Below are positions 2-46,421 of a stretch of DNA of 47,915 nt, piece after piece. The DNA lies in assembly GCA_902785605.1 (NCBI GenBank), contig CACZZL010000020.1, positions 1 to 47,915 of the forward strand. Reading direction: 5' to 3'. The notes under the pieces are model-generated. The model was not told the origin of the DNA. It ran no database searches and worked only from the letters and a program-made list of their open reading frames with translations. The translations under genes were made by a program, and so were the position numbers. How positions within the stretch are numbered: the stretch's first letter is position 1; the number at the start of each line of letters is the position of its first letter. The DNA comes from an uncultured Bacteroidales bacterium (lineage in GTDB: Bacteria; Bacteroidota; Bacteroidia; Bacteroidales; Paludibacteraceae).

Positions 2-265
2 TACAACATCAACAGCATTACGGCCTTGGCTGGCGGACCGCGGTCGATGTATATCGACTGGATACGTATCTATCAGCGCGGAGATGAAGGCGAGTCGTTC
101 CATTGCCCCTCGGCCTCCGACCCCATCGAGCCGGAAAATCCTCAAGGAATGGAAGAAATTAAAAATGAAGAATTAAATATTACGAATAAAATCCTGCGTG
201 ACGGGCAACTGCTGATCCGTCGTGGCGAGAATATCTATACGGTAACAGGTCAAATGGTGAAATGA
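2..265 (+). CDS. C-terminal end of a secreted GH16-type glucanase with T9SS-like tail (partial)
   Basis: Only the last 87 codons are in the window; the reading frame is open to the left edge. The segment SMYIDWIRIYQ is the usual last beta-strand of GH16 (laminarinase-type) beta-glucanases, and the next gene ends its GH16 domain with the similar MYVDYIRVYK. After an acidic linker comes a tail of the form KILRDGQLLI...YTVTGQ, which also ends two other secreted enzymes here (at 15088 and 15076). I read it as a short T9SS sorting signal. The linker before the tail is made of A-rich 7-bp repeats. The stop overlaps the next ATG (ATGATGA), so it is the upstream member of the glucan operon. The GH16 assignment rests on the C-terminus only. 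Confidence 0.6.
   Translation, partial: YNINSITALAGGPRSMYIDWIRIYQRGDEGESFHCPSASDPIEPENPQGMEEIKNEELNITNKILRDGQLLIRRGENIYTVTGQMVK
156..190 (+). repeat. Heptamer array, AT-rich (5 units)
   Basis: Units AAATTAA, AAATGAA, GAATTAA, ATATTAC, GAATAAA in exact 7-bp register. The array is translated as the linker between the enzyme body and the T9SS-like tail. Confidence 0.6.
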
Positions 266-1251
266 TGAAACAATTTACAATTCACAATTTACAATTCACA
301 ATTATTGCTTTGGCGGTTTGTGCATTCAGTTCATGCACCAAGCCTGAGTACGAGCTCGTATGGAGTGATGAGTTTGACGGCGAGAGTCTCAATACCGCGT
401 ATTGGAACGTGGAGGATAATGCCCGTGGAGGCGGCAATGCGGAGTTGCAGTACTATGCGCCGAAAAACATCACAATCGAGCGCCATCCCGTCACAGGCGA
501 GAGCTGTCTTGTGCTCAACGCCCAACGCGAAGACTACGGCAACCGTCCCTGTACCTCAGCCCGCCTGAACACGCAGGACAAGGTGACGGTTGAGTACGGA
601 AAAGTGGAAGCACGAATAGCTTTCCCCTATACAGCCAACGGTCTGTGGCCTGCGTTCTGGATGCTGGGCAACAACCTCGCAACCAACCTGGGCGATAACG
701 ATGATGTGGACAAACGGCTGGAGGAACTGGCCAAAGATGGCAGAGTAGTGTGGCCCAAGTGCGGCGAGATAGACATCTGCGAGATGGGACATCATCACGG
801 CATCGAGACCGGCACTCAGGACCGTTATTTCAACGGCGCATGTCATTGGGGCGAGTCGTTCAATAACGGCGCGTATCCCAACTATGGCCAGTTCAACACG
901 GCCGATTATCCGGTACAAGGCGATTTTCACCTGTTCACGCTCGAGTGGAGCGAGGACTCGATTGCCATGTATCTGGACAAAGATATCTACCCGGATGGGA
1001 CGCCGTACTTCGAGTTGTCGCTCCGCGGCAAGGACATCAACGAACCGGGTCATTACTTCAACCACCCGTTCTATCTGGTGCTCAACCTGTCGGTCGGCGG
1101 ATTCTTCCCCAACATGCCGGCAGCCGAGAAGTACCCGGAGCTAATCACGGCAGACGACCCGTCGTTCCAACAAGTAACGGCCCTGCCGGCAGACGGAACG
1201 CCCGTTAAGATGTATGTAGATTATATACGCGTATATAAGAAAAGGAGATAG
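262..1251 (+). CDS. GH16 endo-beta-glucanase lipoprotein (laminarinase-like)
   Basis: This 329-residue protein is probably an outer-membrane-anchored endo-beta-1,3(4)-glucanase. A signal peptide ends in the lipobox-like AFSSC at about residue 25. The GH16 domain starts at YELVWSDEFDG and carries the catalytic signature GEIDICEMG, with Glu169 as nucleophile and Glu174 as acid/base. The body ends with MYVDYIRVYK and there is no T9SS tail, unlike its upstream neighbour. The first 14 codons are built from five ACAATTY/ACAATTA heptamers, so the signal peptide N-region comes from a repeat. ATG at 262 overlaps the previous stop; a second ATG at 265 is possible. It is followed after 2 bases by the symporter. 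Beta-1,3 specificity is inferred from family and neighbours. Confidence 0.9.
   Translation: MMKQFTIHNLQFTIIALAVCAFSSCTKPEYELVWSDEFDGESLNTAYWNVEDNARGGGNAELQYYAPKNITIERHPVTGESCLVLNAQREDYGNRPCTSARLNTQDKVTVEYGKVEARIAFPYTANGLWPAFWMLGNNLATNLGDNDDVDKRLEELAKDGRVVWPKCGEIDICEMGHHHGIETGTQDRYFNGACHWGESFNNGAYPNYGQFNTADYPVQGDFHLFTLEWSEDSIAMYLDKDIYPDGTPYFELSLRGKDINEPGHYFNHPFYLVLNLSVGGFFPNMPAAEKYPELITADDPSFQQVTALPADGTPVKMYVDYIRVYKKRR
270..304 (+). repeat. Heptamer array ACAATTN (5 units) forming a signal-peptide start
   Basis: ACAATTT, ACAATTC, ACAATTT, ACAATTC, ACAATTA in perfect register. They encode the residues just after the start of the GH16 lipoprotein. Confidence 0.85.
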
Positions 1252-1253
1252 TT

Positions 1254-2687: not shown

Positions 2688-5662
2688 AATATAACAGAAG
2701 CTATATGAAAGACGTTAAGGGGCAATTCATAACGATTAACGGGGAGCGATTCTACGAGATCGCCAACTACGATGCGATGCAGCCGTTCTTTATCTCGCTG
2801 GCATCGGACACGGATCTGTGGATGTACTTATCCTCCACAGGTGGTTTGACCTGCGGTCGTCGCAGTCCGGGTGAGGCGCTGTTCCCGTACTACACGGATG
2901 ATAAGATCACCGAGAGTTACGAGTTCACCGGACCGCGTACGGAGATAAAGGCGAAGGGCGAAGGGTCTAATGGCGGGTGGTTGCCGTTCTCCAATCATCA
3001 ACAACCGGTCTATGATCTCTCGCGTAAGATTGCCAAATCGGCGGTAGGTAACCAGATCGTGTTCTGCGAAGAGAACCATACACTCGGACTCCGTTTTTCC
3101 TATATATGGGCACCGGCAGGCCAACACGGATGGGTACGTCGGGCAACCCTGGAGAACCTGAGTGGTCAGGCGCTGGAGATCGAACTGACGGACAGACTGC
3201 TTAACGTGCTGCCGGCTGGGGTAGAGCGTAAGACGCAGAATGAGTTCTCCACGCTTGTGGACGGATACAAGAAAACCGAACTGGTGCCAGGAACCCCATT
3301 GGCACTCTTCCGCATGGAGGCGATCCTTGTGGACCGGGCCGAACCGTCTGAGTCCCTGACTTGCAACACCATGTATTGTCTAGGATTACCTCGAGGGAGG
3401 TACGATAAGACTCCGTCTAAGGGAGTACGTGGAGCTTTTGTGGCTGAGGCTGACTTACAGTTGCCGGCTCATGGTTCGCAGACTTGGTACAACGTACTCG
3501 ACGTGAGCAAGGACGCCGTAGCGGTACACGACCTCATGCGTTTCATCGCCCGACCTGATGCGATCGAGCAGATCGAGCAGGCGATGCACGAATCGACCGA
3601 GACGCTCAAACGCATCGTGGCGCAGAACGACGGAATCCAACAGACCGGAGACGAGGCGAACGATGCACGTCATTTTGCGAACGTGCTGTTCAACACCATG
3701 CGCGGCGGTTACTACCTGACGTATCCGCCTACTTCCGACACGCAAGACCTGCCCCTGACCTTTGGTCGTCGGCACGGAGACCCCTCCCGTCCGTGGAACC
3801 TGTTCTGCATTCGTGTGCAGGACGAGAACGGCAAGCCGGTCGTAGCGTACCAGGGTAACTGGCGCGATATATTCCAGAACTGGGAAGCGCTCTCGTACAG
3901 CTATCCGCTGTTCATCAACCATATCATCGCGAAATTCCTCAACGCCACCACGGCAGACGGCTACAACCCCTACCGCATCTCCAACGAAGGAATAGACTAC
4001 GAGGTGATCGAACCCGAGAACCCATGGTCGAACATCGGTTATTGGGGAGACCATCAGATCATATACTTATTGAAACTGCTGGAACTCAGCGCCAAGCACG
4101 AGCCCGATAAACTGCAGTCTCTGCTTAACGAACGTCGTTTCGCGTTTGCGAACGTGCCGTACCGTTTGAAGAGTTATGCCGAGATCGTGGCTGACCCGAA
4201 GAACAGTATCCGCTTCGACGACGAGGAGCACAAACGGATCCAGGCCCTCATCCCGACCATGGGACCGGATGCCAAATTGCTGCTTGATACCAACGGTCAG
4301 ATCCGTCACACCACGATGGCAGACAAACTGCTCATCACCTTGCTGACTAAGTTGTCGAATTTCATTCCGAATGCCGGTATATGGATGAACACCTTACGGC
4401 CCGAATGGAACGATGCCAACAATGCCCTGGTGGGTTACGGCGCATCTATGGTCACGCTCTGTTACATGCGCCGCTACGTGGCGTTCCTGCAACAACTCAT
4501 TCAGACCGATGTGCAGATCGGTGCCGAGACTCTGGACTTCCTGCGGGCCATCCGTCACGCGTACCCGAATGGCAATGCCAAGCAGTTCATTAACATCGTC
4601 GGCACGGCCGGCGAGGCGTACCGTAACAAGGTCTATACCGGTCTCAGCGGCGAGATGCAGACGCTCGAGCAAGCCGAACTGCAGGAGTTCTGCGCCGCTA
4701 CGCTGCATAAGATCGACGATTCGATTCGCGCCAACAAACGGGCGGACGGATTGTACGAGGCATATAACCTCATCCGCTTCACGGACAACGATATCGAGAT
4801 CAGCCATCTGTACCAGATGCTGGAAGGTCAGGTAGCCGTGCTCTCGTCCGGTCTGTTGAGCGGCGAAGAAGCAGCCGACTTGCTGGATGCGATGCGTGCG
4901 TCCGACCTCTACCGTGAGGATCAACGCAGTTACATGCTTTACCCGAACCGACGTAGAAAGAGTTTCTTGGAACTCAACAACCTGCCCGATGAGGCGAAAA
5001 ACCTGCCCGTCGTGCAGAAACACCTCGGCACGATCCTCAAACAGGACTGCGACGGCGGTATTCATTTCGATGCCCGTTATCGTAATGCGAACGACCTGCC
5101 GGATGAACTGAAAGACCTGTACGAGCAGGTGTTCAACCACCACGCTTTCACAGGACGTAGCGGCACCTTCTATAAGTACGAAGGACTCGGATGTATCTAC
5201 TGGCATATGGTCTCCAAACTGCTGCTCGCAGTCGGAGAGAATATCGCTCGTGACGGTAATGCGCGTCTCAAAGCACAATACGCTGAGATACGTGAAGGAA
5301 TCGGTTCACACAAGAACCCGGCCGAGTATGGCGCGTTCCCGTTTGATCCGTATTCGCATACACCTTCGATGGCCGGTGTCCAACAACCCGGTATGACCGG
5401 ACAGGTAAAGGAAGATATCATCAGCCGCTGGTTCGAACTCGGCGTGTCCGTTACAAACGGACAGATCACCTTCTGCCCGACCATGCTCACCGAGAACGAT
5501 TTCACGAGCGGCGAGTTGCGCTTTACCTACTGCGGAACGGAGATTATTTATAAGAAATCATCCGTTACCGGTAACCCGTCACCCGTAACCCTTTCCAAAG
5601 AGCAATCAGCACATATCTTTGCCCGCGACGGCAAGATCCAACAAATAACCGTAGAAGTATGA
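2684..5662 (+). CDS. GH94-like (clan GH-Q) beta-glucan oligosaccharide phosphorylase
   Basis: A 992-residue protein without signal peptide, so cytoplasmic. The N-terminal part (FYEIANYDAMQPFFISLASD, then LTCGRRSPGEALFPYYTDDK) matches the cellobiose-phosphorylase type of fold; NIGYWGDHQIIYLLKLLE in the middle (about residues 450-467) lies in the expected (alpha/alpha)6 catalytic barrel. Related families are GH94, GH149 and GH161; the last two act on beta-1,3-gluco-oligosaccharides, which would suit GH16/GH30 neighbours, but I cannot choose between them by eye. Phosphorolysis would give glucose-1-phosphate without spending ATP. Near the C-terminus a four-unit CCCGTAA-type array encodes SVTGNPSPVT. 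Both ends overlap neighbours by ATGA. A start at codon 8 (2705) is possible. Confidence 0.75.
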   Translation: MKYNRSYMKDVKGQFITINGERFYEIANYDAMQPFFISLASDTDLWMYLSSTGGLTCGRRSPGEALFPYYTDDKITESYEFTGPRTEIKAKGEGSNGGWLPFSNHQQPVYDLSRKIAKSAVGNQIVFCEENHTLGLRFSYIWAPAGQHGWVRRATLENLSGQALEIELTDRLLNVLPAGVERKTQNEFSTLVDGYKKTELVPGTPLALFRMEAILVDRAEPSESLTCNTMYCLGLPRGRYDKTPSKGVRGAFVAEADLQLPAHGSQTWYNVLDVSKDAVAVHDLMRFIARPDAIEQIEQAMHESTETLKRIVAQNDGIQQTGDEANDARHFANVLFNTMRGGYYLTYPPTSDTQDLPLTFGRRHGDPSRPWNLFCIRVQDENGKPVVAYQGNWRDIFQNWEALSYSYPLFINHIIAKFLNATTADGYNPYRISNEGIDYEVIEPENPWSNIGYWGDHQIIYLLKLLELSAKHEPDKLQSLLNERRFAFANVPYRLKSYAEIVADPKNSIRFDDEEHKRIQALIPTMGPDAKLLLDTNGQIRHTTMADKLLITLLTKLSNFIPNAGIWMNTLRPEWNDANNALVGYGASMVTLCYMRRYVAFLQQLIQTDVQIGAETLDFLRAIRHAYPNGNAKQFINIVGTAGEAYRNKVYTGLSGEMQTLEQAELQEFCAATLHKIDDSIRANKRADGLYEAYNLIRFTDNDIEISHLYQMLEGQVAVLSSGLLSGEEAADLLDAMRASDLYREDQRSYMLYPNRRRKSFLELNNLPDEAKNLPVVQKHLGTILKQDCDGGIHFDARYRNANDLPDELKDLYEQVFNHHAFTGRSGTFYKYEGLGCIYWHMVSKLLLAVGENIARDGNARLKAQYAEIREGIGSHKNPAEYGAFPFDPYSHTPSMAGVQQPGMTGQVKEDIISRWFELGVSVTNGQITFCPTMLTENDFTSGELRFTYCGTEIIYKKSSVTGNPSPVTLSKEQSAHIFARDGKIQQITVEV
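5561..5591 (+). repeat. CCCGTAA-type heptamer cassette (4 units) inside the phosphorylase
   Basis: TCCGTTA, CCGGTAA, CCCGTCA, CCCGTAA, CCC. It encodes SVTGNPSPVT in the same frame as the cassettes at 7830, 35147, 39969 and 45183. Confidence 0.85.
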
Positions 5663-7287
5663 GACCAATCACCAATTACCAATTACCAATAACCATTCTT
5701 ATGGTCTTTGCCCTTATGGCATGCACTCCGCAGATCCAATCCTCCCACGTCTGGCTCACCTCCGAAGCCGGAGACAAGTGTGCCGAGAAAGAGGCGGTGG
5801 TTTTCCATAAGGGTGCCGTTGACGGCGCAATTAGCGTTGATCTCAACGACCGTAGGCAGCAGATCGACGGATTCGGCAATTCCATTACCGAGTCGTCTGT
5901 GTTCGTGTTGGCGTGTCTCACACCCGAGCAGCGTCACGCGGTATTGGAAGAGATGTACGGCGAGAACGGAGCGAACTTCTCCGCAAGCCGTACCGTGGTG
6001 GGTGCTTCGGACTTTGCGCTCAAAGGCCATTACTCTTACGACGATGTGGACGGAGATGAGGCCTTGGACCACTTCTCAATGGCCGTTCATCAAGACGGAT
6101 TCTCCAAAGACGAGTATCCGCAGATCAAGGACGAGTTCTTCGATATGTGGCAATGTCTCGATGAGATCAAGTGGATTAAGCTGAATCAGGCAGACCATGA
6201 GTGGCGTTTGGTCGCTTCGCCTTGGACCGCGCCGGCATGGATGAAAGACAACAAACAGTTCTTCGACAAACAGAACCGTTACGGCGGAGCGCTCCTGCCG
6301 GAGTATTACGATGCGTTCGCGCGCTATTTTGTCAAGTATCTGAAGGCCTATGAATTTGCCGGTATCCGCTTCTGGGCCATCACACCGGAGAACGAACCCA
6401 TGGGTAATGACGGTTCATGGGAATCCATGCACCTGTCTCCTGCCGCGGAGACTGCGCTCATAGGACAATACCTCGGCCCGGAGATGGAGAAGAACGGGTT
6501 CGGCGATGTGAAGATCCTCGGCTTTGACCAGAACACCTTCGAAGCGGCTCCTTATACTGCCGCTATCTACGGCGACTCGGCAGCTAATCATTACACGGAC
6601 GGAACGGCGCTCCATTGGTACGGCTCAACCGTCAGCTGTTTCCCCGAAGTGCTGGATTCGCTCCATGCGGCACACCCCGACAAACGACTCATTCATACCG
6701 AAGGCTGTGTGGATAACCTCGGTCGTGACGGTTGGCCCGGCGTATCGGACTACGAGGGATACAAAGAGTGCTGCTGGTTCAATAACGATGCGTTCTGGTG
6801 GACCCCGTCGGCTACCGATTGGGCTTATTCGACCCCCTGGTGGCCCGATTGGCATCCCAAGTACGCCGTTACTCACCGCTATGCGTCCTATATCATCGAC
6901 GGTCTCAACCATTGGCTGACCGGTTATATCGATTGGAATGCCGTGCTCGACTCCATTGGCGGTCCGACCCATGTGAACAACAACTGCGGCGCCATGCTCA
7001 TGGTGGACTACGAGAACGACGTCCTCTATTTTACACCGTATTACTATGTACTCAAGCAGTTCAGCCGCTCTATGCGCCCGGGGGATGTGGTGTTGGGAGT
7101 TCATTCGCCTTTCGCCGATAACCTTTCGCCTATTCATCTCTGCGCGGTAGCGAAGCAGGATGGTTCGTACGCGATCAATATCCTTAATACGGGCGAGGCG
7201 ATTCATTTCCCGCTGCAGATAGGCGAGTACATCGCCGATGTGGCTATGCCTGCCAATAGTGTAGAAACAATCATTGTGAAGTTATGA
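5659..7287 (+). CDS. GH30 glucanase lipoprotein (probable endo-beta-1,6-glucanase)
   Basis: A 542-residue lipoprotein; the signal peptide ends at LMVFALMAC. GH30 features are IDGFGNSITESS at the start of the barrel, the acid/base in TPENEPMG (Glu246) and the nucleophile in LIHTEGCVDN (Glu348). The family includes beta-1,6-glucanases and glucosylceramidases; beside GH16 and GH3 genes, removal of beta-1,6 branches from fungal or algal beta-glucan is the likely role. The first residues, RPITNYQLPIT, are encoded by five ACCAATN heptamers, so the signal-peptide N-region is repeat-derived. The start overlaps the previous stop (ATGA) and the stop overlaps the GH3 start, indicating translational coupling. 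Confidence 0.9.
   Translation: MRPITNYQLPITILMVFALMACTPQIQSSHVWLTSEAGDKCAEKEAVVFHKGAVDGAISVDLNDRRQQIDGFGNSITESSVFVLACLTPEQRHAVLEEMYGENGANFSASRTVVGASDFALKGHYSYDDVDGDEALDHFSMAVHQDGFSKDEYPQIKDEFFDMWQCLDEIKWIKLNQADHEWRLVASPWTAPAWMKDNKQFFDKQNRYGGALLPEYYDAFARYFVKYLKAYEFAGIRFWAITPENEPMGNDGSWESMHLSPAAETALIGQYLGPEMEKNGFGDVKILGFDQNTFEAAPYTAAIYGDSAANHYTDGTALHWYGSTVSCFPEVLDSLHAAHPDKRLIHTEGCVDNLGRDGWPGVSDYEGYKECCWFNNDAFWWTPSATDWAYSTPWWPDWHPKYAVTHRYASYIIDGLNHWLTGYIDWNAVLDSIGGPTHVNNNCGAMLMVDYENDVLYFTPYYYVLKQFSRSMRPGDVVLGVHSPFADNLSPIHLCAVAKQDGSYAINILNTGEAIHFPLQIGEYIADVAMPANSVETIIVKL
5664..5698 (+). repeat. ACCAATN heptamer array (5 units) forming a signal-peptide start
   Basis: ACCAATC, ACCAATT, ACCAATT, ACCAATA, ACCATTC in perfect register, two codons after the GH30 start codon. 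Confidence 0.85.
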
Positions 7288-12781: not shown

Positions 12782-12788
12782 TTTCCAA

Positions 12789-12816
12789 GTTGAGAGTTTA
12801 GAGTTTAGGGTTGAGA
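12789..12816 (+). repeat. GTTGAGA/GTTTAGA heptamer array, left flank of IVP gene
   Basis: GTTGAGA, GTTTAGA, GTTTAGG, GTTGAGA in register. The 14-mer at 12802-12815 matches the reverse complement of 13269-13282 at 13 of 14 positions. Confidence 0.9.
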
Positions 12817-12846
12817 GAAGTAGAAAGTTTTAAGTAGATAGTAGTT

Positions 12847-13224: not shown

Positions 13225-13282
13225 ACTACTATAAACTATAAACTCAAAACTACACTCAACACTAAACACTCAACACTAAACT
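13221..13282 (+). repeat. ATAAACT/ACTCAAC/ACTAAAC heptamer array, right flank of IVP gene
   Basis: ATAAACT units at 13221, 13231 and 13238, CAAAACT, then ACTCAAC, ACTAAAC, ACTCAAC, ACTAAAC at 13254-13281. The last four are the complement-family of the left array. The array begins at the stop codon of the IVP gene and runs to 14 bases before the frdB ATG. Confidence 0.85.
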
Positions 13283-23832: not shown

Positions 23833-23853
23833 GTTGAAAGTTGAAATTGAAAG
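23833..23853 (+). repeat. GTTGAAA heptamer array (short) in the porP leader
   Basis: GTTGAAA, GTTGAAA, TTGAAAG, followed by AAATTGAAA that contains the porP TTG start codon. The array is degenerate, and this is the weakest member of the set. Confidence 0.5.
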
Positions 23854-23856
23854 AAA

Positions 23857-36505: not shown

Positions 36506-36510
36506 AAAAA

Positions 36511-36563
36511 CTCTCAACTTTCAACTGTCGTGCTTCTTTCAACTCTCAACTTTCAACTCTCAA
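36511..36563 (+). repeat. CTTTCAA/CTCTCAA heptamer array spanning the DUF4886 gene start
   Basis: CTCTCAA, CTTTCAA, CTGTCGT, then after four bases CTTTCAA, CTCTCAA, CTTTCAA, CTCTCAA (36536-36563). It starts 5 bases after the polA stop and encodes the N-terminus of the next protein. Confidence 0.9.
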
Positions 36564-37342
36564 CTATATTGCTCGTCATTCGCATCCTGTGCATCGGCAA
36601 CTCGTTCTCGTGGGATGCGGTCGAGCAGGAACTCGTGCCGCTTTGTGCCGAACAAGGCATTGAGGTGGAGATTCATAACCTGTACTACGGCGGTTGCTCG
36701 TTGCAGCAACACGCTCAGTTCCTGCTCCAAGATACCGCTGCCTATTCGCATCGCGTCTGCACCAATGACCAATCACCAATGTCCAATCACCAATGTCGTG
36801 TCATCAAAGATACGATTACGCTTCGTCAAGCCCTGCTGAACGGCGAATACGATTACATATCGCTTCAACAGGCCAGCCATGACAGCGGTATCCGCAGCAC
36901 GTACGAACCCTGGCTCACCATGCTCATCGACACCGTCCGGGCCTACCAGCCGAACGCACAACTCTGTTGGATGCAGACTTGGGCCTATAGTCGCGATGCC
37001 AAGCATCCCGCTTATCCGCGTTACCATAACAACCAACAGGAGATGTGGGACAGCATCCAAGCCTGCACAAGAGCATTAACCATGAACCATTCGCCATTAG
37101 CCCTCATTCCTTGCGGCGATGCGATACAACGCGCAAGGAATACGAAGTTAGGCGACACCCTCTGCCGCGACGGCTACCATCTCAACTACGTCTATGGACG
37201 TTACACAGCCGCCTGCGTATGGTACGAGTTCCTCACCGGCAAAGATGTACGACGCAACCAATACAAGAATCCGCAAATGACCAATCAACAGCGTCGCTTG
37301 ACCCAAAAGTCAGCACACGCTGCAAACAAAAAGAGCCGCTAA
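36530..37342 (+). CDS. DUF4886 SGNH/GDSL-type hydrolase
   Basis: A 270-residue esterase-fold protein. IRILCIGNSFSWDAVEQELV carries the nucleophile Ser in the GNSFS block; YDYISLQQASHDSG is the second block and DGYHLNYVYGRYTAA the C-terminal Asp/His block. The N-terminus (LLSTLNFQLSTILL) is encoded by CTTTCAA-type heptamers; if translation starts at 36530 it gives a weak signal-like segment, but TTG at 36569 would give a cytoplasmic protein. Two more heptamer arrays lie inside (36761, translated TNDQSPMSNHQC; 37074, translated TMNHSPLA). The stop codon lies in the loop of the terminator. The substrate is unknown. Confidence 0.82.
   Translation: MLLSTLNFQLSTILLVIRILCIGNSFSWDAVEQELVPLCAEQGIEVEIHNLYYGGCSLQQHAQFLLQDTAAYSHRVCTNDQSPMSNHQCRVIKDTITLRQALLNGEYDYISLQQASHDSGIRSTYEPWLTMLIDTVRAYQPNAQLCWMQTWAYSRDAKHPAYPRYHNNQQEMWDSIQACTRALTMNHSPLALIPCGDAIQRARNTKLGDTLCRDGYHLNYVYGRYTAACVWYEFLTGKDVRRNQYKNPQMTNQQRRLTQKSAHAANKKSR
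36761..36795 (+). repeat. ACCAATN heptamer array (5 units) in the DUF4886 gene
   Basis: ACCAATG, ACCAATC, ACCAATG, TCCAATC, ACCAATG in register. Confidence 0.9.
37074..37101 (+). repeat. CATTNRC heptamer array (4 units) in the DUF4886 gene
   Basis: CATTAAC, CATGAAC, CATTCGC, CATTAGC in register. Confidence 0.75.
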
Positions 37343-37356: not shown

Positions 37357-37452
37357 GTGATTTTATCACGGATTTCTTCGTAATCCTTGTGATTTTATCA
37401 CGGATTTCTTCGTAATCCTTGTGATTTTATCACGGATTTCTTCGTAATCCTT
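37357..37452. repeat. Three perfect 32-bp tandem repeats
   Basis: Units at 37357-37388, 37389-37420 and 37421-37452 are identical. Each holds GTGAT-TTT-ATCAC and GGATT-TCTTCGT-AATCC, two small hairpins; the second has the 5-bp stem and 7-base loop of a tRNA T-arm but not its loop consensus. The array begins right after the terminator and ends exactly where the tRNA-Arg similarity breaks off. There are no spacers, so it is not a CRISPR. Confidence 0.97.
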
Positions 37453-38660: not shown

Positions 38661-40280
38661 ATGAAAAAGAAATCTCTTCCGATAGTTTGTGCGGCGTTTC
38701 TGATCATCGCGATGACGATTCAGTTCATCGTCTCCTATCGCCACGAGAAAGCCGATCTGATGCGGCAGATGGACTACAAGATGGAGTTGGCACAGAAAGA
38801 TTTCCTGTTCGAGATCTACGACATGCACGAAGCCACGGATGAGATCGCCCAATTCTTCACCGAGTTCAACACCGGCACGGAGGACCTGTGCGCCTTGCTA
38901 CAAACAGTGCTGTACGATTATCCGGACCTGTACTGCTGCTATTTGACGTTCCTGCCGGAGTGTTCGCCGAACCCCGGACAATGGTGCAGCCCGACCGCTT
39001 TTCGTGTGACGGCCGATTCGGTCATCGCCTACGATGCCAAGGATTGTATCCCCTATAAACAGCGTGACTGGTACACCGGTGCGCTCAAGAATGAAAAAAA
39101 CGAGGGGCACTGGAGCCTGCCGTACAAAGATGGCACCCACGAAGACCTCGTCTTTACCTACTCGCAGCAAGTGTACGACGAGCAGGATCAACTGGTCGCT
39201 ATCGCGGGTGCGGACTATACGCTGGCATGGACGGCGCGACTGTTGGAAGAGGTCAAACCCTATGACGATGCGGTCTGTCAACTGTTCAGCACCGACGGCA
39301 CCCTCATCGTCGGAAGCGGGGATGCGACCAAAGTGCGCGACCGGATCATGTTCGAGAAGACACTGTCTCCGACAGACATGCGCCTCGTGATCAGTGTGCC
39401 CAAGTCCCACATACGCCGGAGCATCACCGGCATCAGCCTCATTACCCTCACCGTCCTGCTGTCCGGAATCCTGATCCTCGGACTGCTGCTACGTCATATC
39501 AAGCAGGAACAAGACGCGTTCACCCGCGTAGAGACCGCTAACAAACTGATGGAGAAAGAGATGCAGATCGCCCATGACATCCAAATGGGCATCTTGAAGG
39601 GCAATAGTCTCAAGGCGCAAGGCGAACGGGCAGAGCTGCAGTTGGACGCAAGGCTGATACCGATGCGCGAAGTGGGAGGAGACCTGTATGACTATTACCT
39701 CGAAGCAGATAAACTGTGGTTCATCATCGGAGACGTGAGCGGCAAAGGAGTGCCGGCTGCTATGTTCATGAGCGCGGCCGTCAACCTCTTCCGGGCTGCA
39801 AGGGGGCGTGCGCATTCGCCCCGACAGATCATGGAAGAGATGAACGCGGTACTGAGCGAGAACAACCCCTCCATGACCTTCGTCACGGCTTTTATCGGCT
39901 GTCTGCACATCTCGACCGGTGAACTGATCTACTGCAATGCCGGGCATTGCGCGCCGCTGATATACTCTCCCGTAACCCGTAACCCCTCACCCGTAACCCT
40001 TACCCCCAACATACCCATCGGCTATGACGGCTTGTTCCAATTCACCGAGCAGCGTGCCCATTTAAACCCGGACGACACACTCGTGCTCTACACCGACGGC
40101 ATCACCGAGGCACGCAATGAACAACGCACGATGCTCGGAATGAAACGGTGGGCGGACATCGTGGAACGTGGACAGTGGAACGTCGACAGCCTGTTGAACG
40201 ACGTGCAAGCGTTCATGGGCGAAGCCGAACAAGCGGACGATGTGACACTGATGACCATTCATTTAACTAAAAATGCATAA
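38661..40280 (+). CDS. Membrane-bound PP2C/SpoIIE-type serine phosphatase with Cache sensor (RsbU-like)
   Basis: A 539-residue sensor phosphatase. A first helix (residues 7-26) is followed by a periplasmic Cache-like domain (about 30-250; RDWYTGALKNEKNEGHWSLP is typical), then a second helix (about 255-277). A short linker with MQIAHDIQMGIL leads to the SpoIIE-type PP2C domain (about 305-535). The metal ligands are in REVGGDLYDYY, IIGDVSGKGVPAAMFM, LYTDGITEARN and QADDVTLMTIH. It should dephosphorylate the STAS protein encoded 15 bases downstream. A CCCGTAA heptamer cassette adds SPVTRNPSPVT to a loop after HCAPLIY. Confidence 0.92.
   Translation: MKKKSLPIVCAAFLIIAMTIQFIVSYRHEKADLMRQMDYKMELAQKDFLFEIYDMHEATDEIAQFFTEFNTGTEDLCALLQTVLYDYPDLYCCYLTFLPECSPNPGQWCSPTAFRVTADSVIAYDAKDCIPYKQRDWYTGALKNEKNEGHWSLPYKDGTHEDLVFTYSQQVYDEQDQLVAIAGADYTLAWTARLLEEVKPYDDAVCQLFSTDGTLIVGSGDATKVRDRIMFEKTLSPTDMRLVISVPKSHIRRSITGISLITLTVLLSGILILGLLLRHIKQEQDAFTRVETANKLMEKEMQIAHDIQMGILKGNSLKAQGERAELQLDARLIPMREVGGDLYDYYLEADKLWFIIGDVSGKGVPAAMFMSAAVNLFRAARGRAHSPRQIMEEMNAVLSENNPSMTFVTAFIGCLHISTGELIYCNAGHCAPLIYSPVTRNPSPVTLTPNIPIGYDGLFQFTEQRAHLNPDDTLVLYTDGITEARNEQRTMLGMKRWADIVERGQWNVDSLLNDVQAFMGEAEQADDVTLMTIHLTKNA
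39969..39999 (+). repeat. CCCGTAA heptamer cassette (4 units) in the RsbU-like gene
   Basis: CCCGTAA, CCCGTAA, CCCCTCA, CCCGTAA, CCC; translated PVTRNPSPVT. It is the cleanest copy of this cassette. Confidence 0.92.
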
Positions 40281-40602: not shown

Positions 40603-43600
40603 ATGAAACACTTAATCGAATACTTCAAAAAACACGTAGCCGAGCGTCCGAACGATATCTTCTGTATCGCATCAGACAAACGCATCACCTTCGCTGAGGC
40701 AGACCGTCTGTCGGATACGCTCGATCCGCAGTATGTCACCCGTTGCGGCGACAAAGTGGCAGCGTTTATCGTGCCTCGTAATGAACTGATGGTACTCGTA
40801 CCTCTTGCTATCGCCAAGGCAGGCTTGACCGCTATGCCGCTCGATGGCTCCTATCCCGAAGAACGACTGAAATACATGCGGGAAGATGCCGCCAAGTACG
40901 ACGGCGACGAGGCTTTTGTGCTGCTCTATACCTCCGGTACAACCGGCATCCCCAAGGGCGTCATGCTCAGCGAAGCGAACATCTTGGCATTCCTGGATTT
41001 TCATGTGCAGGCCATCGGCTTGACTCCGCAAAGCAAGTACGCCACCTACGCCGGTTACGGCTTCGATGCCTTCCAGATGGACCTGTGGTGCTGCGTCAAA
41101 GCAGGTGCGACCATCTGTATCGTAGGCGACGAGATCCGTTTTGATCTGGAGGGGCTCAACCAATATATCCAAGACGAGCACATTACCCACTGCTTTATGA
41201 CCACCCAGATGGCAACGCAGCTTGTGCTCAATTATCCGGACATCCCGGGCTTGCAGTGGCTCGGAACGGGCGGCGAGAAACTGATCAGCCTTGATCCGCC
41301 TTCGTACAAGTTGATGAACTGCTACGGCCCGACGGAGTGTACCATCTATGTCAGCAGTTTCTTCGTGACGCAGAACGAACCCAATATACCTATCGGCAAA
41401 GCCAATACGAACGGTACGCGACTCATCGTCGTGGGGCAGGACGGCAAAGAAGTACCGACCGGCACGGACGGCGAGCTCTATGTAGCCGGACCACAGGTGT
41501 CGCTCGGATACCTCAACCAACCCGAGAAGACCGCAGAAGTCTTCGTCGATTGGAACGGCTTGCGTTGCTACAAAACCGGCGACATCGTTCACTACCGCGA
41601 GGACGGCAACATCGAGTTCGTCGGCAGACGCGACGGACAGGTGAAGATCCGTGGTTTCCGTATCGAACTCAAAGAGGTGGAAGCTATCATCCGTGAGTTC
41701 CCCGGCATCAAGGATGCGACCGTACAGGCCTTCGATTACCCGGATGGCGGTAAGTTCATCGCTGCCTATGTCGTCAGCGACGAGAAGATCAATATTGACG
41801 AACTCAATACCTTCATCGCCGACAGCAAACCGCCGTACATGGTGCCCGCGGTAACAATGCAGATTGACGCTATACCGCTCAACCCGAACCAGAAAGTGGA
41901 TAAAAGAGCCCTGCCCAAACCCGGAGCGTCTCCCCGACGGAACGGGGAGAGCGGCCTCCGCCTAGAGGGGGAAGCTCCCCTCAATGTCCTCGAGCAGGAG
42001 CTACACGACATCATCGCGAAGATTGTCAACATGGAGGAGTTCGGCATCACCACCGACCTGCGCTACATGGGTCTCTCATCTATTGCCGCCATCAAGTTGG
42101 CAACCCAGATATTCAAGCGTTTCGGCGTCCAACTCGATGCCAAACAGATGACCAAAGGTATCACCCTCCAAGCCATCGAGAATGAGATACTCGCTGCGAT
42201 GTTAGGCGGTCATCAATCACCAATCACCAATGACCAATCACCAATTACCAATGACCAATCTCAAATGAGCGAAGCTCCCTTGAGCTTTGCTCAACTCGGC
42301 GTCTATTTCGAGTGCATGAAGAACCCGACCTCGACGCTATATAACGTGCCGATCTGTACTCAGATGCCTTTGGAAGTAGAGACGGAGGCGTTGCGGCAAG
42401 CGGTCCGCAAGGCAGTACTCAACCACTCCGAGCTCTTCGTCCATTTCGCTACACAAGAAGCGAATGTCATCCAGACCATCGACGAACAGATGATGAACGA
42501 GGCGCATATCGACGTGCCCGAGAAAGCACTCGAAGAGGCGCAGATGGACGATTTCAAGCATGAGTTCGTACAGCCGTTCAATCTGCAGAAAGACCTGCTT
42601 TTCCGTTTCTTCATCGTGCGCACGGAGAAGAACCTGTATCTGTTGAGCGACATTCACCACCTCGTTTGTGACGGTGCATCGTACGACCTCTTCATCCATG
42701 AGATCTGCGACTTGCTGGAAGGCAAAGAGATAGAACCCGAGATGTGCTCGTATCCGCAGTTCGTGGCGGAGCAGAAAGCCGCTGAAAATGGCGAGTCCTT
42801 CAAAGCCGCTAAGGATTTCTTCGCCGAGCGTCTCACTGGCATCGAGAGCGTCACCGAGATCCAACCCGACCTCACCAACGCCCTGCCACAAGGCGAGAAC
42901 GGACGCGTGTGCGTACCTTTTGATATGCAGACAGCGGAGAAATACGCTGCGCAGTTAGGCGTGACGCCGGCAGCTGTGCTCCTTAGCGCCGTCTATTATT
43001 CCTTGGCACGTTTTGCAGGAACGGACGATGTGTGCATCACCACCATCTCCAACGGACGAAGCAACCTGCGGGTGAACAACACCATGGGAATGTTCGTCAA
43101 CACCCTCGCGCTGACTACGAAGATAGCGAACCAGACGGTTGAGGAGTTCGTCCGCGAGAACGCGCAGTCCTTCGAGCAAACGCTCGCACACGAGGATTAT
43201 CCCTTTGCACGCGTTGCGGCGGATTATGACCTGAAGGCGGAGATCATGTTCGCTTACCAGATGGGCGTGCTGAGCAACTACTCCGTCTTCGGCAAGCCTG
43301 TTTTTGCGGACGAGACCATGGAACAGAACGTGCCGAAATTCAAGATTGCGTTCTATATCATGCCGATGGACGGTGTGCCGTCTATCGCCGTCGAGTACGA
43401 CAACGGATGGTACAGCGAAGCGCTGATTACCAACCTCGCGCAGTCGGTAGCGAACGCCGTGCTGGCTTTTGCAGCGAACGCTGACGCTCCTTTGCGTGCT
43501 ATATCGCTTCTTAATGAAGCACAGACAGCGGTGCTCGACTCGTTCAATCAGACTGAGGTGCCTTATGACGACACCCAGACCATCGTCTCGCTCTTCCGTA

Positions 43601-44886
43601 AGCAAGCAGCCGAGACGCCCGATAACCTCGCCGTCGTTTATCACGACGTCCGCCTGACCTACAAAGAGGTCGATGAGCAGACGGACGCCATCGCTGCACG
43701 GATCATAGAGGTCATTGGCAACGATACGAAAGAGAAAGTTGTTTCTATCCTCATCAACCGTTCCGAATGGATGGTAGTCGCTTCGTTGGCTGCCCTCAAA
43801 GCCGGTTGCGCTTATCAACCGCTCGATCCGTCTTATCCGGCAGAGCGTCTGAACTTTATGATGAAGGATGCCAACGCATCCCTCCTCATTGCGGATGAAG
43901 ACCTCCGTCCCATCGTTAACGAATACGAGGGCCCGGTTCTGCTGACCAAGGAGTTAGGGAAATTACAAATCACCAATCACAAATCACAAATCACAAATAT
44001 AAATCCCTCGGATTTATTCATCCTCCTTTATACTTCGGGTTCTACCGGCGTGCCGAAAGGTTGCCAGCTGGAGCATCGCAACCTTGTGGCGTTCTGTCAT
44101 TGGTACCATCGTTACTACGAGCTGCATGCCGGAGACAAAGTGGCAGCATATGCTTCGTTCGGTTTCGATGCGAACATGATGGACATGTACCCCGCGCTCA
44201 CTTGCGGTGCAGCAGTCTATATCATCGGCGAAGATATTCGTCTGAACCTGCCGGATCTGAATCATTACTTCGAGGCCGAAGGCATCACCCATTCGTTCAT
44301 GACGACCCAGGTGGGCTATCAGTTTGCGCAGAACTGCGATAACCACTCCCTCAAGCACTTGTCTGTGGGAGGAGAAAAACTCGCGACTATCGCGCCGCCG
44401 GCTAACTACCTGCTTCATAACGGGTACGGTCCGACCGAGTGTACGATCTTCACGACCACTTACCCGATACATGAGCAGGAGAAGAATATCCCTATCGGCA
44501 AACCGCTGGATAACTTCCGGCTCTTCATCGTTGATAAGGACCTGCACCGTGTGCCTGTAGGTGCTACAGGCCGTGGCTACCTCAACCGTCCTGACAAAAC
44601 GGCTGAAACGTATATCGACTGGAATGGTCTTCGCTGCTACAGAACAGGCGACGTCGTGCGTTACCTGGAGGACGGAAACATTCAGTTTGTCGGAAGACAG
44701 GACGGTCAGGTGAAGATCCGCGGTTTCCGTATCGAACTCAAAGAGGTCGAGGCGGTCATCCGTGAGTTCCCGGGCATCAACGATGCTACCGTACAGGCCT
44801 TTGATTACCCCAACGGAGGTAAGTTCATCGCGGCATATATCGTCAGCGACAGCAAGATTGACATCCAGGCACTCAATTCCCGCTGA
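40603..44886 (+). CDS. Nonribosomal peptide synthetase, modules A-PCP-C-A (5' part, ends at a frameshift)
   Basis: 1427 residues read before a premature stop. A1 occupies 1-440 (LLYTSGTTGIPKG from about 107, NCYGPTECTIY, YKTGDIV, NQKVDKRALP). PCP1 is about 462-530 with Ser493 in MGLSSI. The C domain is about 550-970 with active HHLVCDG at 685-691. A2 is about 990-1427 (LLYTSGSTGVPKG near 1143, NGYGPTECTIF, YRTGDVV). A1 reaches its A3 motif about 45 residues early, so part of its N-subdomain is missing. A2 lacks the GELYVAGPQ stretch (near 44570) and then runs to a stop where its last 20 or so residues are missing. Residues at the specificity positions read D-A-M-F-G-G-C-I-Y for A1 and D-A-M-F-S-G-G-I-F for A2; I do not assign amino acids. 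Repeat inserts lie in three linkers. Confidence 0.88.
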   Translation: MKHLIEYFKKHVAERPNDIFCIASDKRITFAEADRLSDTLDPQYVTRCGDKVAAFIVPRNELMVLVPLAIAKAGLTAMPLDGSYPEERLKYMREDAAKYDGDEAFVLLYTSGTTGIPKGVMLSEANILAFLDFHVQAIGLTPQSKYATYAGYGFDAFQMDLWCCVKAGATICIVGDEIRFDLEGLNQYIQDEHITHCFMTTQMATQLVLNYPDIPGLQWLGTGGEKLISLDPPSYKLMNCYGPTECTIYVSSFFVTQNEPNIPIGKANTNGTRLIVVGQDGKEVPTGTDGELYVAGPQVSLGYLNQPEKTAEVFVDWNGLRCYKTGDIVHYREDGNIEFVGRRDGQVKIRGFRIELKEVEAIIREFPGIKDATVQAFDYPDGGKFIAAYVVSDEKINIDELNTFIADSKPPYMVPAVTMQIDAIPLNPNQKVDKRALPKPGASPRRNGESGLRLEGEAPLNVLEQELHDIIAKIVNMEEFGITTDLRYMGLSSIAAIKLATQIFKRFGVQLDAKQMTKGITLQAIENEILAAMLGGHQSPITNDQSPITNDQSQMSEAPLSFAQLGVYFECMKNPTSTLYNVPICTQMPLEVETEALRQAVRKAVLNHSELFVHFATQEANVIQTIDEQMMNEAHIDVPEKALEEAQMDDFKHEFVQPFNLQKDLLFRFFIVRTEKNLYLLSDIHHLVCDGASYDLFIHEICDLLEGKEIEPEMCSYPQFVAEQKAAENGESFKAAKDFFAERLTGIESVTEIQPDLTNALPQGENGRVCVPFDMQTAEKYAAQLGVTPAAVLLSAVYYSLARFAGTDDVCITTISNGRSNLRVNNTMGMFVNTLALTTKIANQTVEEFVRENAQSFEQTLAHEDYPFARVAADYDLKAEIMFAYQMGVLSNYSVFGKPVFADETMEQNVPKFKIAFYIMPMDGVPSIAVEYDNGWYSEALITNLAQSVANAVLAFAANADAPLRAISLLNEAQTAVLDSFNQTEVPYDDTQTIVSLFRKQAAETPDNLAVVYHDVRLTYKEVDEQTDAIAARIIEVIGNDTKEKVVSILINRSEWMVVASLAALKAGCAYQPLDPSYPAERLNFMMKDANASLLIADEDLRPIVNEYEGPVLLTKELGKLQITNHKSQITNINPSDLFILLYTSGSTGVPKGCQLEHRNLVAFCHWYHRYYELHAGDKVAAYASFGFDANMMDMYPALTCGAAVYIIGEDIRLNLPDLNHYFEAEGITHSFMTTQVGYQFAQNCDNHSLKHLSVGGEKLATIAPPANYLLHNGYGPTECTIFTTTYPIHEQEKNIPIGKPLDNFRLFIVDKDLHRVPVGATGRGYLNRPDKTAETYIDWNGLRCYRTGDVVRYLEDGNIQFVGRQDGQVKIRGFRIELKEVEAVIREFPGINDATVQAFDYPNGGKFIAAYIVSDSKIDIQALNSR
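41930..41982 (+). repeat. GC-rich palindromic insert in the A1-PCP1 linker
   Basis: Two hairpins, CTCCCCG-ACGGAA-CGGGGAG (41930-41949) and GAGGGG-GAAGCT-CCCCTC (41965-41982), joined by 15 bases. Translated in frame as the Arg/Gly-rich linker SPRRNGESGLRLEGEAPL, unlike the sequence on either side. It resembles repetitive palindromic elements that insert within coding sequences. Confidence 0.7.
42214..42262 (+). repeat. CAATNAC heptamer array (7 units) in the PCP1-C linker
   Basis: CAATCAC, CAATCAC, CAATGAC, CAATCAC, CAATTAC, CAATGAC, CAATCTC. Translated as a heptapeptide repeat HQSPITNDQSPITNDQSQMS. Confidence 0.95.
43966..44000 (+). repeat. CAAATCA heptamer array (5 units) in the A2 domain
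   Basis: CAAATCA, CCAATCA, CAAATCA, CAAATCA, CAAATAT. Translated QITNHKSQITNI, just ahead of the A3 motif of the second adenylation domain. Confidence 0.92.
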
Positions 44887-44900
44887 ACCAGAACCAGAAA

Positions 44901-46421
44901 GTGAACAAACGTGCCCTTCCTGCTCCGCAACTCACCGACACCGACCGCGACTACGTGGAGCCGGCTAACGACAACGAGAAACTCTTCTGCGACATCTTCG
45001 CGTCCATCCTAAATCAGGACAAGATAGGTGCTACGGATAACTTCTTTGAACTCGGCGGTACGTCGCTCATGGTTACGCGTGTTATCATCGAAGCGGACAA
45101 AGCCGGAAAGCATGTCGCTTACGGTGATATCTTCACCCATCCGACGCCGCGTCTCCTGTCTCAGTTCCTCTCAGGAGAAGCACCCGTAACCGGTAACCCC
45201 TCACCCGTAGCCGATGAAAATAACTTTGATTACTCAGGCATTGATGCCATTCTGCAACGCAATAATCTCAATACGTTCCTGCGCGGAGAGCGTCAGGAGT
45301 TAGGCAATGTACTGCTCACCGGTGCTACCGGTTATCTCGGCATCCATGTCCTGCGCGAACTGATTGATTCGGACGCCAAGACCATCACTTGTCTTGTTCG
45401 CGGAAAAGACCAGCACGATGCGCAACGACGTCTGCGTAACTTGCTCTTCTACTATTTCGACCGGCGTTTTGATGAACTCTTCGGCACCCGTCTCTTCGTT
45501 GTCAATGGCGATGTGACAAACGACATAAATGACCAAATGTCAAATGGCAAATCTCAAATTTCAAATATAACCACCGTCTTCAACTGTGCAGCGAACGTCA
45601 AGCACTTCTCCAAGACCGACGACATTGAGCAAGTGAATATCGGTGGCGCGGAGCGTTGTGTGGAGTTCTGTCTGAAGACCGGCGCACGGCTTGTACATAT
45701 ATCCACTACCTCTGTCGGAGAGATATGGGTAGATCGCGGTGACGGCAAGGCAGTACCCGAACTGTCGGAACGCTTGTTGTACTTCGGTCAGTTCCTTGAT
45801 AACCGCTATATGCGGTCGAAGTTCCTCGCTGAACGAGTCATCCTCGAAGCGGTCGCTCGTCATGGGCTGAACGCTAAGGTCATGCGTGTCGGTAACCTCG
45901 CAGCCCGTAGCTACGACGGAGAATTCCAGGCGAACTTCCAGACAAACAGTTACATGGGACGACTCAAAGTGTTCTCCACGCTCGGCTGCTGTCCGATAGA
46001 CGAATACGATTCGCTGGCGGAGTTCTCACCGGTGAACGAGACCGCAAAGGCTGTCGTGCTACTTGCATCTACGCCGAAGGAGTGTAATGTCTTCCAGCCC
46101 TTCAACAACCATACCGACCTCTTGGGCGATATCCTCGCGGGCTTTGAGAAGATAGGCAAGTCTATCCGTTACGTGGAGGAAGACGAGTTCCAGAAAGCGA
46201 TTCTCGAGGCCAGCAAAGACCCGAAGAAAGCCAGCCTCATGTCCGCTCTCTTGGCATACCAAGACATGACGCATGGACAGAAAGCAGTCACCATCGAGCG
46301 GGATAACCGCTATACCTCCGCTGTCCTGCTCCGTTTGGGATTCCATTGGTCTGCACCGGATAGCGCGTATGTCAATCGTATGCTAACTGCTATCAGCCAA
46401 TTAGGATTCTTTGATGTATAA
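44901..46421 (+). CDS. NRPS 3' part: PCP and thioester reductase domain (same gene, after the frameshift)
   Basis: 506 residues read from GTG at 44901, but this is almost certainly the continuation of the upstream gene. It opens with NKRALPAPQ, the last motif of an adenylation domain (compare NQKVDKRALPKPG of A1). PCP2 follows with Ser55 in LGGTSLMV. After a heptamer-coded linker comes the reductase domain: NAD(P)-binding GATGYLG at 141-147, ISTTSVGE and Tyr303-Lys307 in YMRSK. Such domains release the peptidyl thioester as an aldehyde or alcohol. A-T-C-A-T-R is the order of the aureusimine synthetase and of gut-bacterial dipeptide-aldehyde synthetases. No phosphopantetheinyl transferase is seen nearby. 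Confidence 0.85.
   Translation: MNKRALPAPQLTDTDRDYVEPANDNEKLFCDIFASILNQDKIGATDNFFELGGTSLMVTRVIIEADKAGKHVAYGDIFTHPTPRLLSQFLSGEAPVTGNPSPVADENNFDYSGIDAILQRNNLNTFLRGERQELGNVLLTGATGYLGIHVLRELIDSDAKTITCLVRGKDQHDAQRRLRNLLFYYFDRRFDELFGTRLFVVNGDVTNDINDQMSNGKSQISNITTVFNCAANVKHFSKTDDIEQVNIGGAERCVEFCLKTGARLVHISTTSVGEIWVDRGDGKAVPELSERLLYFGQFLDNRYMRSKFLAERVILEAVARHGLNAKVMRVGNLAARSYDGEFQANFQTNSYMGRLKVFSTLGCCPIDEYDSLAEFSPVNETAKAVVLLASTPKECNVFQPFNNHTDLLGDILAGFEKIGKSIRYVEEDEFQKAILEASKDPKKASLMSALLAYQDMTHGQKAVTIERDNRYTSAVLLRLGFHWSAPDSAYVNRMLTAISQLGFFDV
45183..45210 (+). repeat. CCCGTAA heptamer cassette (4 units) in the PCP2-reductase linker
   Basis: CCCGTAA, CCGGTAA, CCCCTCA, CCCGTAG; translated PVTGNPSPVA. 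Confidence 0.9.
45534..45568 (+). repeat. CAAATNN heptamer array (5 units) in the reductase domain
   Basis: CAAATGT, CAAATGG, CAAATCT, CAAATTT, CAAATAT. Translated NDQMSNGKSQISNI, between FVVNGDV and TTVFNCAANV of the Rossmann fold. Confidence 0.92.

What the first reader, a model, noticed from the sequence alone, without database searches (positions are those of the whole stretch)
156..45568. Dispersed 7-bp tandem repeats invade genes and spacers across the whole window
I find 18 arrays with strict 7-bp period: 156, 270, 5561, 5664, 7830, 8596, 12789, 13221, 23833, 35147, 36511, 36761, 37074, 39969, 42214, 43966, 45183 and 45534. They fall into a few families (CCCGTAA; CCAATNA/CAAATNN; CTTTCAA/CTCTCAA and its complement GTTGAGA/GTTTAGA). 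About 15 lie wholly or mostly in coding sequence. They are concentrated in accessory or linker regions and absent from gldKLMN, frdC, frdA, frdB, truB and ung. Heptamer STRR sequences are known in filamentous cyanobacteria; here a Bacteroidota chromosome seems to have an analogous but protein-invading system. Because 7 is not a multiple of 3, each array cycles through all frames and gives a heptapeptide repeat every 21 bp. How they spread (slippage, gene conversion, or a mobile agent) is open.
Basis: partly seen in the sequence, partly recalled or inferred. Interest (0 to 1): 0.88.

Follow-up and report, generated by a model that had tools for sequence, protein, structure and literature searches.

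The report
Heptamer repeats shared with S23 elements
A bacterium related to uncultured rumen Bacteroidales is peppered with tandem 7-base repeats in gene spacers and in loose joints of its proteins, and the same kind of repeat forms matching inverted arms around a small gene known from split ribosomal RNA, which hints at where such repeats may come from.

Summary
Period 7 dominates: 67 arrays in 448 kb of this genome (nearest named relatives: uncultured Bacteroidales MAGs), against 0-6 for the other unit lengths from 2 to 13 bases and none in simulated sequence. The window is unusually rich in coding arrays; in the sample 30 of 80 are coding, 10 partly, 40 intergenic.

Further results. (1) Related species use different heptamers ("dialects"): mostly CTTTCAA here, CTTTCGA in G022 and G007, CTTTCAC in G046. 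Unlinked arrays thus share sequence within a genome, which slippage at each locus alone does not explain. (2) At five sites of the NRPS and reductase genes, relatives hold different repeats with the frame kept; PolA and GH3 show the same turnover. (3) Genes for the S23/IVP protein, one of them here between frdA and frdB, have inverted flanks (16/30 and 19/40 loci, against 5/340 ordinary genes). Where these are heptamer arrays, they tend to match the dispersed arrays of the same genome.

Best reading: the arrays belong to a copied pool that also forms the stem arms of S23 intervening elements. The source role is unproven: element number does not track array number, S23 remnants are nearly absent from solo arrays, and phylum-wide the S23 flanks are inverted but not clearly heptameric.

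The parts
12788..12817 (+). left heptamer arm (GTTGAGA/GTTTAGA) of the S23/IVP element, just after the frdA stop
   Evidence: pairs with the right arm in the predicted RNA fold
12847..13224 (+). S23/IVP four-helix-bundle protein gene, 125 aa
   Evidence: Pfam PF05635 E 5.9e-34; NCBIfam TIGR02436 E 1e-31; PDB 2gsc E 1.2e-16
13228..13281 (+). right heptamer arm (ACTCAAA/ACACTCAAC/ACACTAA), inverted relative to the left arm, 14 bp before the frdB start
270..303 (+). ACAATTY array coding the signal-peptide start of a GH16 protein
   Evidence: gene 262-1251; signal peptide read by eye
5562..5591 (+). CCCGTAA-type array near the 3' end of the GH149 beta-1,3-glucan phosphorylase gene
5664..5695 (+). 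CCAATNA array coding the signal-peptide start of a GH30 protein
   Evidence: signal peptide read by eye
7830..7848 (+). degenerate CCCATAA array in a GH3 loop; loop short or differently filled in relatives
8597..8616 (+). CTTTCAA array in a second GH3 loop; palindromic G+C-rich repeat there in G022 (L161)
23833..23862 (+). weak GTTGAAA array at the start of the PorP/SprF-like gene
35147..35176 (+). degenerate CCCGTAA array in PolA, between the 5'-3' exonuclease and polymerase domains; other repeats at this point in some relatives
   Evidence: sequence; domains; relatives
36509..36565 (+). CTYTCAA array over the polA/DUF4886 junction and the DUF4886 signal-peptide start
   Evidence: signal peptide read by eye
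36761..36797 (+). CCAATNA array in the DUF4886 gene
37074..37102 (+). weak CCATTAR-type array in the DUF4886 gene
39969..40007 (+). CCCGTAA array in the SpoIIE-type phosphatase gene
42210..42260 (+). CCAATNA array in an inter-domain linker of the NRPS gene; different fillings in relatives, frame kept
43960..44005 (+). CAAATCA array in a second NRPS linker; different fillings in relatives
45182..45209 (+). CCCGTAA array in the reductase gene downstream of the NRPS gene
45534..45566 (+). CAAATNN array in the same reductase gene

Best explanation
The arrays are copies drawn from a genome-specific pool of short heptamer sequences. The same pool forms many of the inverted arms of S23/IVP intervening elements. 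Such an element is a small gene for a four-helix-bundle S23 protein enclosed by two inverted flanks, often heptamer arrays in this genus, which in RNA would pair into a long stem with the gene in the loop, as in the intervening sequences of 23S rRNA. Shown: the arrays, the dialects, the loop turnover, the inverted arms, the match of heptamer arms to dispersed arrays pooled over genomes, one predicted RNA stem, and third-position-biased change in one pair of S23 genes. Inferred: that the elements are the main carriers; that arms and solo arrays exchange sequence by copying of short tracts (template switching or gene conversion) followed by slippage; and that selection then keeps only copies that fall in spacers, signal peptides, loops or linkers and stay in frame.
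For: Dialects: arrays of one genome share their commonest heptamer in 196/4387 pairs, against 510/42206 between genomes; label permutation (all pairs) 0.048 vs mean 0.018, max 0.029 of 1000. Exact matches for CTTTCAA/CTTTCGA/CTTTCAC repeats: G000 14/0/2, G022 3/33/0, G007 2/29/0, G046 8/2/25; merged by hand into places, the leading type makes 9, 20, 18 and 9 places in these four. S23 flanks: inverted match >=20 in 16/30 and 19/40 loci vs 5/340 control genes with intergenic flanks (Fisher p 6e-16 and 8e-17). Phylum: 8/30 vs 0/30 for places 700 bp further out. Arm heptamers match own dispersed arrays in 106/1060 pairs vs 221/8620 in other genomes; none of 1000 permutations reach this, though pairs are not independent. 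Own arms match 28/73 dispersed arrays in G000, 17/38 in G015, 7/10 in G006. Window element: RNA fold z -3.97, 0 of 100 shuffles as good. frdA-frdB junction, 30 loci sorted by eye: 15 bare, 7 repeat-like spacers, 2 full elements, 1 decayed element, 1 other gene, 4 with another arrangement. S23 pair G000/G014: codon-position differences 26/21/71 of 125. [quoted passage not shown]
Against: S23 gene number does not track array density: G014 has 7 matches and 0 arrays (score >=13) in 80 kb; G003 has 0 and 10 per 100 kb. A search of 3.3 Mb for S23 pieces (E<=1e-3) found 7 places, all near full length; the decayed element in G012 is a single case. Unit-order shuffling shows little excess of shared strings (G000: 92 vs 95 at >=18 bases, 47 vs 33 at >=21; G022 1 vs 2 at >=21). 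Arms in G022 match only 2 of 25 own arrays, fewer than those of G006 do (5); in G051 own 5 of 14 vs 6 for G015's arms; G051's arms match 24 of 73 G000 arrays, nearly as many as G000's own 28. Many arms are not heptameric, and 35 of the 70 genus loci lack an inverted match >=20. Direct matches are also somewhat raised in the second set (7/40 vs 18/340; 2/30 in the first). Phylum-wide, period-7 arrays are not clearly enriched in S23 flanks (4 of 60 vs 4 of 120 control parts; period 14: 8 of 60 vs 2 of 120). Of the 7 repeat-like frd spacers only 2 reach score 11 at period 7; one more does at 14, one at 8, three are weak. No transposition event was seen.
Confidence: 0.4

Rival explanations
1. No special agent: arrays arise by slippage (7-base loops escape mismatch repair), spread by ectopic template switching between arrays, and accumulate wherever selection tolerates them. 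S23 elements merely build their stems from this local material because they need inverted arms.
For: Ten-fold higher density in intergenic DNA (0.78 vs 0.078 per kb in G000); loops and linkers hold many unrelated repeats; array-bearing genomes with no S23 match such as G003; no S23 remnants found at solo arrays in 3.3 Mb.
Against: Nearby related arrays are usually direct (58 direct vs 18 inverted pairs within 1.6 kb, the 18 including S23 elements), so inverted arms around S23 genes need a separate cause. Escape from mismatch repair is recalled knowledge, not tested.
Confidence: 0.38
2. Independent slippage at each locus, an ordinary microsatellite load with nothing shared between loci.
For: Heptanucleotide repeats are the commonest long-unit class in most genomes of a survey (Mrazek 2007 as cited in PMC4679880, passages read); unit-order shuffling gives little excess; G015 mixes dialects (18/10/18).
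Against: Genome-specific dialects that differ by one base at many unlinked places; the irregular string CCCCTCACCCGTA at six places of the G000 sample with different flanks.
Confidence: 0.08
3. A resident reverse transcriptase writes the repeats, telomerase-like (as DRT10) or through an Avd-type retroelement.
For: S23 is a distant relative of Avd (NCBIfam NF033474 E 5e-9, below cut-off); DRT10 makes tandem-repeat DNA (PMC12632851, abstract and outline seen); G015, the densest sampled genome, has an RVT_1 match.
Against: RVT_1 was not found in G000, G006, G007, G022 and G051, all with arrays; 10 of 41 genomes have a match. Many heptamers per genome do not fit one template. G000 is only 83.5% complete.
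Confidence: 0.05
4. The arrays are binding sites for an RNA- or DNA-binding protein and are kept by selection, as suggested for TAACTGA repeats in Beggiatoaceae.
For: Some arrays fill the stop-to-start gap in operons; in co-directional spacers the purine-rich strand is the coding strand in 52 of 79 cases (25 pyrimidine-rich, 2 equal).
Against: Many different heptamers per genome, arrays inside enzymes, different fillings between species, 15 bare frdA-frdB junctions of 30.
Confidence: 0.07

Closest known systems
Heptanucleotide direct repeats of bacteria (STRR of cyanobacteria; TAACTGA repeats of Beggiatoaceae, Cyanobacteria and some Bacteroidetes, PMC4679880)
   Same: Tandem heptamers dispersed over the genome, mostly few copies, strain-specific placement.
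   Different: Here many heptamer families per genome, species dialects within one genus, frequent coding insertion, and a statistical link to S23 genes, which the passages I read do not mention. That STRR2 (TTGGTCA) is the complement of CCAATGA is recalled, from no call.
23S rRNA intervening sequences with S23p gene (Coxiella, Leptospira and others; PMC4990558)
   Same: S23 protein gene enclosed by inverted repeats predicted to form a stem; heptamers before the S23 gene in Coxiella; decay states.
   Different: The window's element lies between protein genes of an operon, not in rRNA; its arms are heptamer arrays; the S23 pair compared looks conserved at the protein level. RNase III excision untested.
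Rickettsia palindromic elements (recalled)
   Same: Small repeats that insert in frame in protein-coding genes.
   Different: Heptamer arrays are tandem, not palindromic; several unrelated repeat types use the same site.
MITE-like non-autonomous elements (recalled)
   Same: Many short copies beside few gene-bearing copies with related ends.
   Different: No target duplication or transposase shown; solo arrays are single arms, not arm pairs.

Membership tests
Heptanucleotide tandem repeats (STRR/LSSR) | tandem 7-base units far above chance | tested here: met
   67 vs 0-6 at the other periods from 2 to 13, 0 simulated
Heptanucleotide tandem repeats (STRR/LSSR) | mostly intergenic | tested here: inconclusive
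   G000 sample: 40 intergenic, 30 coding, 10 partly, of 80
S23p intervening sequence (IVS) | S23/IVP protein gene | tested here: met
   PF05635 above cut-off; TIGR02436
S23p intervening sequence (IVS) | terminal inverted repeats forming a stem around the gene | tested here: met
   window element L240: inverted score 27, direct 11; RNA fold z -3.97
S23p intervening sequence (IVS) | located in a 23S rRNA helix | tested here: not met
   the window's element lies between frdA and frdB
S23p intervening sequence (IVS) | excised from the transcript by RNase III | not testable with these tools
   needs RNA
Rickettsia-type protein-invading palindromic elements | in-frame presence/absence in orthologous genes | tested here: met
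   window plus 13 relatives: all 14 lengths at 42192-42290 are multiples of 3; GH3 and PolA
Rickettsia-type protein-invading palindromic elements | palindromic unit | tested here: not met
   heptamer arrays are direct repeats; palindromic repeats occur at the same sites in some relatives
DRT10/telomerase-like repeat synthesis | resident reverse transcriptase | tested here: not met
   no RVT_1 match in G000 (83.5% complete) or in G006, G007, G022, G051

The most novel reading that the evidence does not exclude
S23 intervening elements with repeat-built inverted arms are a widespread mobile family of Bacteroidota, inserting between genes of operons as RNA-loop passengers; their arms are released as solo arrays and are the main source of dialect-specific heptamer repeats that invade spacers, signal peptides and protein linkers, and perhaps of heptamer repeats in other phyla too.
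Probability: 0.25. Interest if true: 0.85.

Novelty: new variant of a known kind. Interest (0 to 1): 0.65.

Why it matters
Heptamer repeats have been listed in bacteria for a long time without an accepted origin that I know of, and S23 proteins have no known function (PMC4990558, passages). The inverted heptamer arms join the two puzzles and make both testable. The dialects show that unlinked short arrays share sequence across a genome, and the loop turnover shows repeat DNA rewriting linkers of core enzymes such as DNA polymerase I with the frame kept.

Tried and rejected
PolA truncation as cause: no 3'-5' exonuclease domain was found in the window's PolA (787 aa), but G014 and G017 also have the short form and show 0 arrays at score >=13 (one each at >=11) in 80 kb each. 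Resident reverse transcriptase: not found in G000 and four other array-bearing genomes, though present in G015. S23 copy number versus array density: no obvious relation by eye, no coefficient computed. Whole-array copying judged by unit order: little excess. S23 remnants at solo arrays: none in 3.3 Mb. A first control with random places (1/300) was replaced by real genes with intergenic flanks (5/340), because random places lie mostly in coding DNA. The reversed-pattern control of the genome search is useless for CTTTCAA, whose reverse is a rotation of itself, and for CCAATNA in some genomes, where it hits another heptamer family.

Literature: nine searches showed me no paper linking heptamer arrays to S23 genes in Bacteroidota; for nearly all hits only titles and starts of abstracts were seen, and most subscription journals are not held. 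Seen: PMC4679880 abstract, outline and passages; PMC4990558 passages; PMC12632851 abstract and outline; PMC5524665 passages.

Rows dropped: one search used 35 S23 loci (one below the family cut-off, four with cut flanks whose hit place was therefore mis-set); searches used 30 of these 35, leaving out those five. One search used 40 further places chosen from the list; the remaining listed places were not fetched. Sorting of the frdA-frdB junction and of loop fillings was by eye; one search scored the seven repeat-like junctions afterwards and only L279 and L283 pass at period 7. In one search several PolA rows were read on the wrong strand; one search repeats this correctly.
Full report
Observation. 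The 7-base arrays are real and specific to period 7. The window is a whole contig of an unnamed 2.08-Mb genome, 83.5% complete, in 28 contigs. The closest named relatives of its NRPS gene are MAGs titled uncultured Bacteroidales (RUG and SRR isolates); more distant ones are titled Paludibacteraceae, Prevotellaceae and others, many from ruminants. In 448 kb, 67 arrays have period 7 (score >=13), that is 15 per 100 kb. Across 15 sampled genomes of the genus (60-448 kb each) the density runs from 0 (G014, G017) to 25.8 per 100 kb (G015). In 56 loci around the NRPS homologue of more distant named MAGs, period 7 also leads (151 vs 21 for period 8 in 1.19 Mb).

Dialects. Each array was reduced to its commonest heptamer, counted without regard to rotation or strand. 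Two arrays from one genome share it in 196 of 4387 pairs, two arrays from different genomes in 510 of 42,206; shuffling genome labels never reached the observed value in 1000 trials. Exact whole-genome counts show one-base dialects: CTTTCAA, CTTTCGA and CTTTCAC repeats are matched 14, 0 and 2 times in G000; 3, 33 and 0 in G022; 2, 29 and 0 in G007; 16, 1 and 0 in G006; 8, 2 and 25 in G046; G015 is mixed (18, 10, 18), and the three types are found in 20, 15 and 11 of 41 genomes (overlapping matches in one array are counted apart). G022 is closer to G000 than G007 is (PolA identity), so the dialect does not simply follow descent. The CCAATNA family was found in 15 of 41 genomes, all in the window's genus; a short CCAATNA-like array also occurs in a locus of a MAG titled Bacteroidales UBA3843 (L089).

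Site turnover in proteins. Fourteen relatives were compared at five sites of the NRPS and reductase genes. At the linker around 42,214, thirteen gave sequence and none matched the window: CAAATNN or CCAATNN-type heptamers, an 8-base ATATCGA type, G+C-rich palindromes, and others; all 14 lengths, window included, are multiples of 3. At the other four sites the length differences are also multiples of 3. At PolA 35,147 the point is filled by CCCGTAA arrays in G000, G006 and G018, a CCAATNA array in G021, a G+C-rich palindrome in G022, and no clear repeat in several others. The GH3 loops at 7,830 and 8,597 are short or differently filled in relatives. Sense strands of coding arrays are open in all three frames in 38 of 85 cases, antisense in 15 of 85.

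S23 link. The arrays at 12,788 and 13,228 are an inverted pair around a 125-aa S23/IVP gene between frdA and frdB. In the genus, 9 of 35 S23 loci have period-7 arrays on both sides within 300 bp. Inverted similarity of the 150-bp flanks reaches 20 in 16 of 30 and 19 of 40 S23 loci, against 5 of 340 ordinary genes with intergenic flanks; direct similarity does so in 2 of 30, 7 of 40 and 18 of 340. Across the phylum, where 116 of 148 genomes have a match to the family, it is 8 of 30 inverted, against 0 of 30 for places 700 bp further out, but period-7 arrays themselves are not clearly enriched there (4 of 60 flank parts vs 4 of 120; period 14: 8 of 60 vs 2 of 120). Arms vary from element to element. 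Heptamers in the arms match the same genome's dispersed arrays about four times more often than other genomes' arrays (106/1060 vs 221/8620); this rests mainly on G000, G015 and G006, and fails in G022 and G051 when arms of other genomes are compared. Non-heptamer arms of the GACAGACCGC and AAAGACCGC types resemble fillings of the NRPS linkers of relatives, and short patterns for them are also met elsewhere in the samples (a reversed control was run for the first pattern only). The window element folds as RNA with z -3.97 and the heptamer arms form the closing stem (only this one element was folded).

A natural series. At the frdA-frdB junction, 30 loci sorted by eye show 15 bare gaps of 2-6 bases, 7 repeat-like spacers, 2 full S23 elements (G000, G014), 1 decayed element with an S23 start and inverted arms (G012), 1 other small gene, and 4 with another arrangement upstream of frdB. 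Of the 7 spacers, 2 reach score 11 at period 7, one at period 14, one at period 8, and three are weak. On a frdB tree the three S23 states lie in three different parts; several forks are poorly supported and the bootstrap had not settled. The S23 proteins of G000 and G014 are 88/125 identical, with differences mostly at third positions (26/21/71), so the protein seems to be kept.

Against. Element number does not follow array density; solo arrays show no S23 remnants in 3.3 Mb apart from seven near full-length genes; unit order is little more shared than after shuffling; half of the 70 S23 loci in the genus sets have no inverted match >=20; arms of another genome sometimes match as well as own arms. 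The source role of the elements is therefore an inference, and a pool of copied short repeats from which S23 elements also build their stems stays nearly as likely.

Known relatives. [quoted passage not shown] Heptamer TAACTGA repeats are described in Beggiatoaceae, Cyanobacteria and five Bacteroidetes, with no mechanism of transfer evident (PMC4679880, abstract and passages). A tandem-repeat-writing reverse transcriptase, DRT10, is known (PMC12632851, abstract), but no RVT_1 match was found in this genome.

Noticed in passing
34142-36505: PolA has 787 aa and no 3'-5' exonuclease domain was found by Pfam; other members of the genus have longer forms with a fuller middle part.
   Followed up: partly
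44850-44930: The window lacks 64 bases found in each of the 12 of 14 relatives that aligned there, and the coding region is split into 40603-44886 and 44901-46421 here; copies without this gap exist in relatives.
   Followed up: partly
37355-37453: A perfect 32-bp unit repeated 3.1 times, containing two small inverted repeats (read by eye).
   Followed up: no
L082, L084, L085, L131 (NRPS linker); L054 (PolA); L161 (GH3): G+C-rich palindromic repeats (CCTCCC...GGGAGG type) sit in the same protein loops that hold heptamer arrays in other species.
   Followed up: partly
G018:C81:35142-36838: An Avd/S23-like gene lies beside a reverse transcriptase gene, possibly a diversity-generating retroelement.
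   Followed up: no
152-260: A C-terminal tail (ILRDGQLLIRRGDKTYNLLGQEV) follows a short repeat linker; similar tails after repeats seem to recur in the genome sample (L044, L049).
   Followed up: no
1-9554: A likely beta-1,3-glucan use cluster: GH16, MFS transporter, GH149 phosphorylase, GH30, GH3.
   Followed up: no
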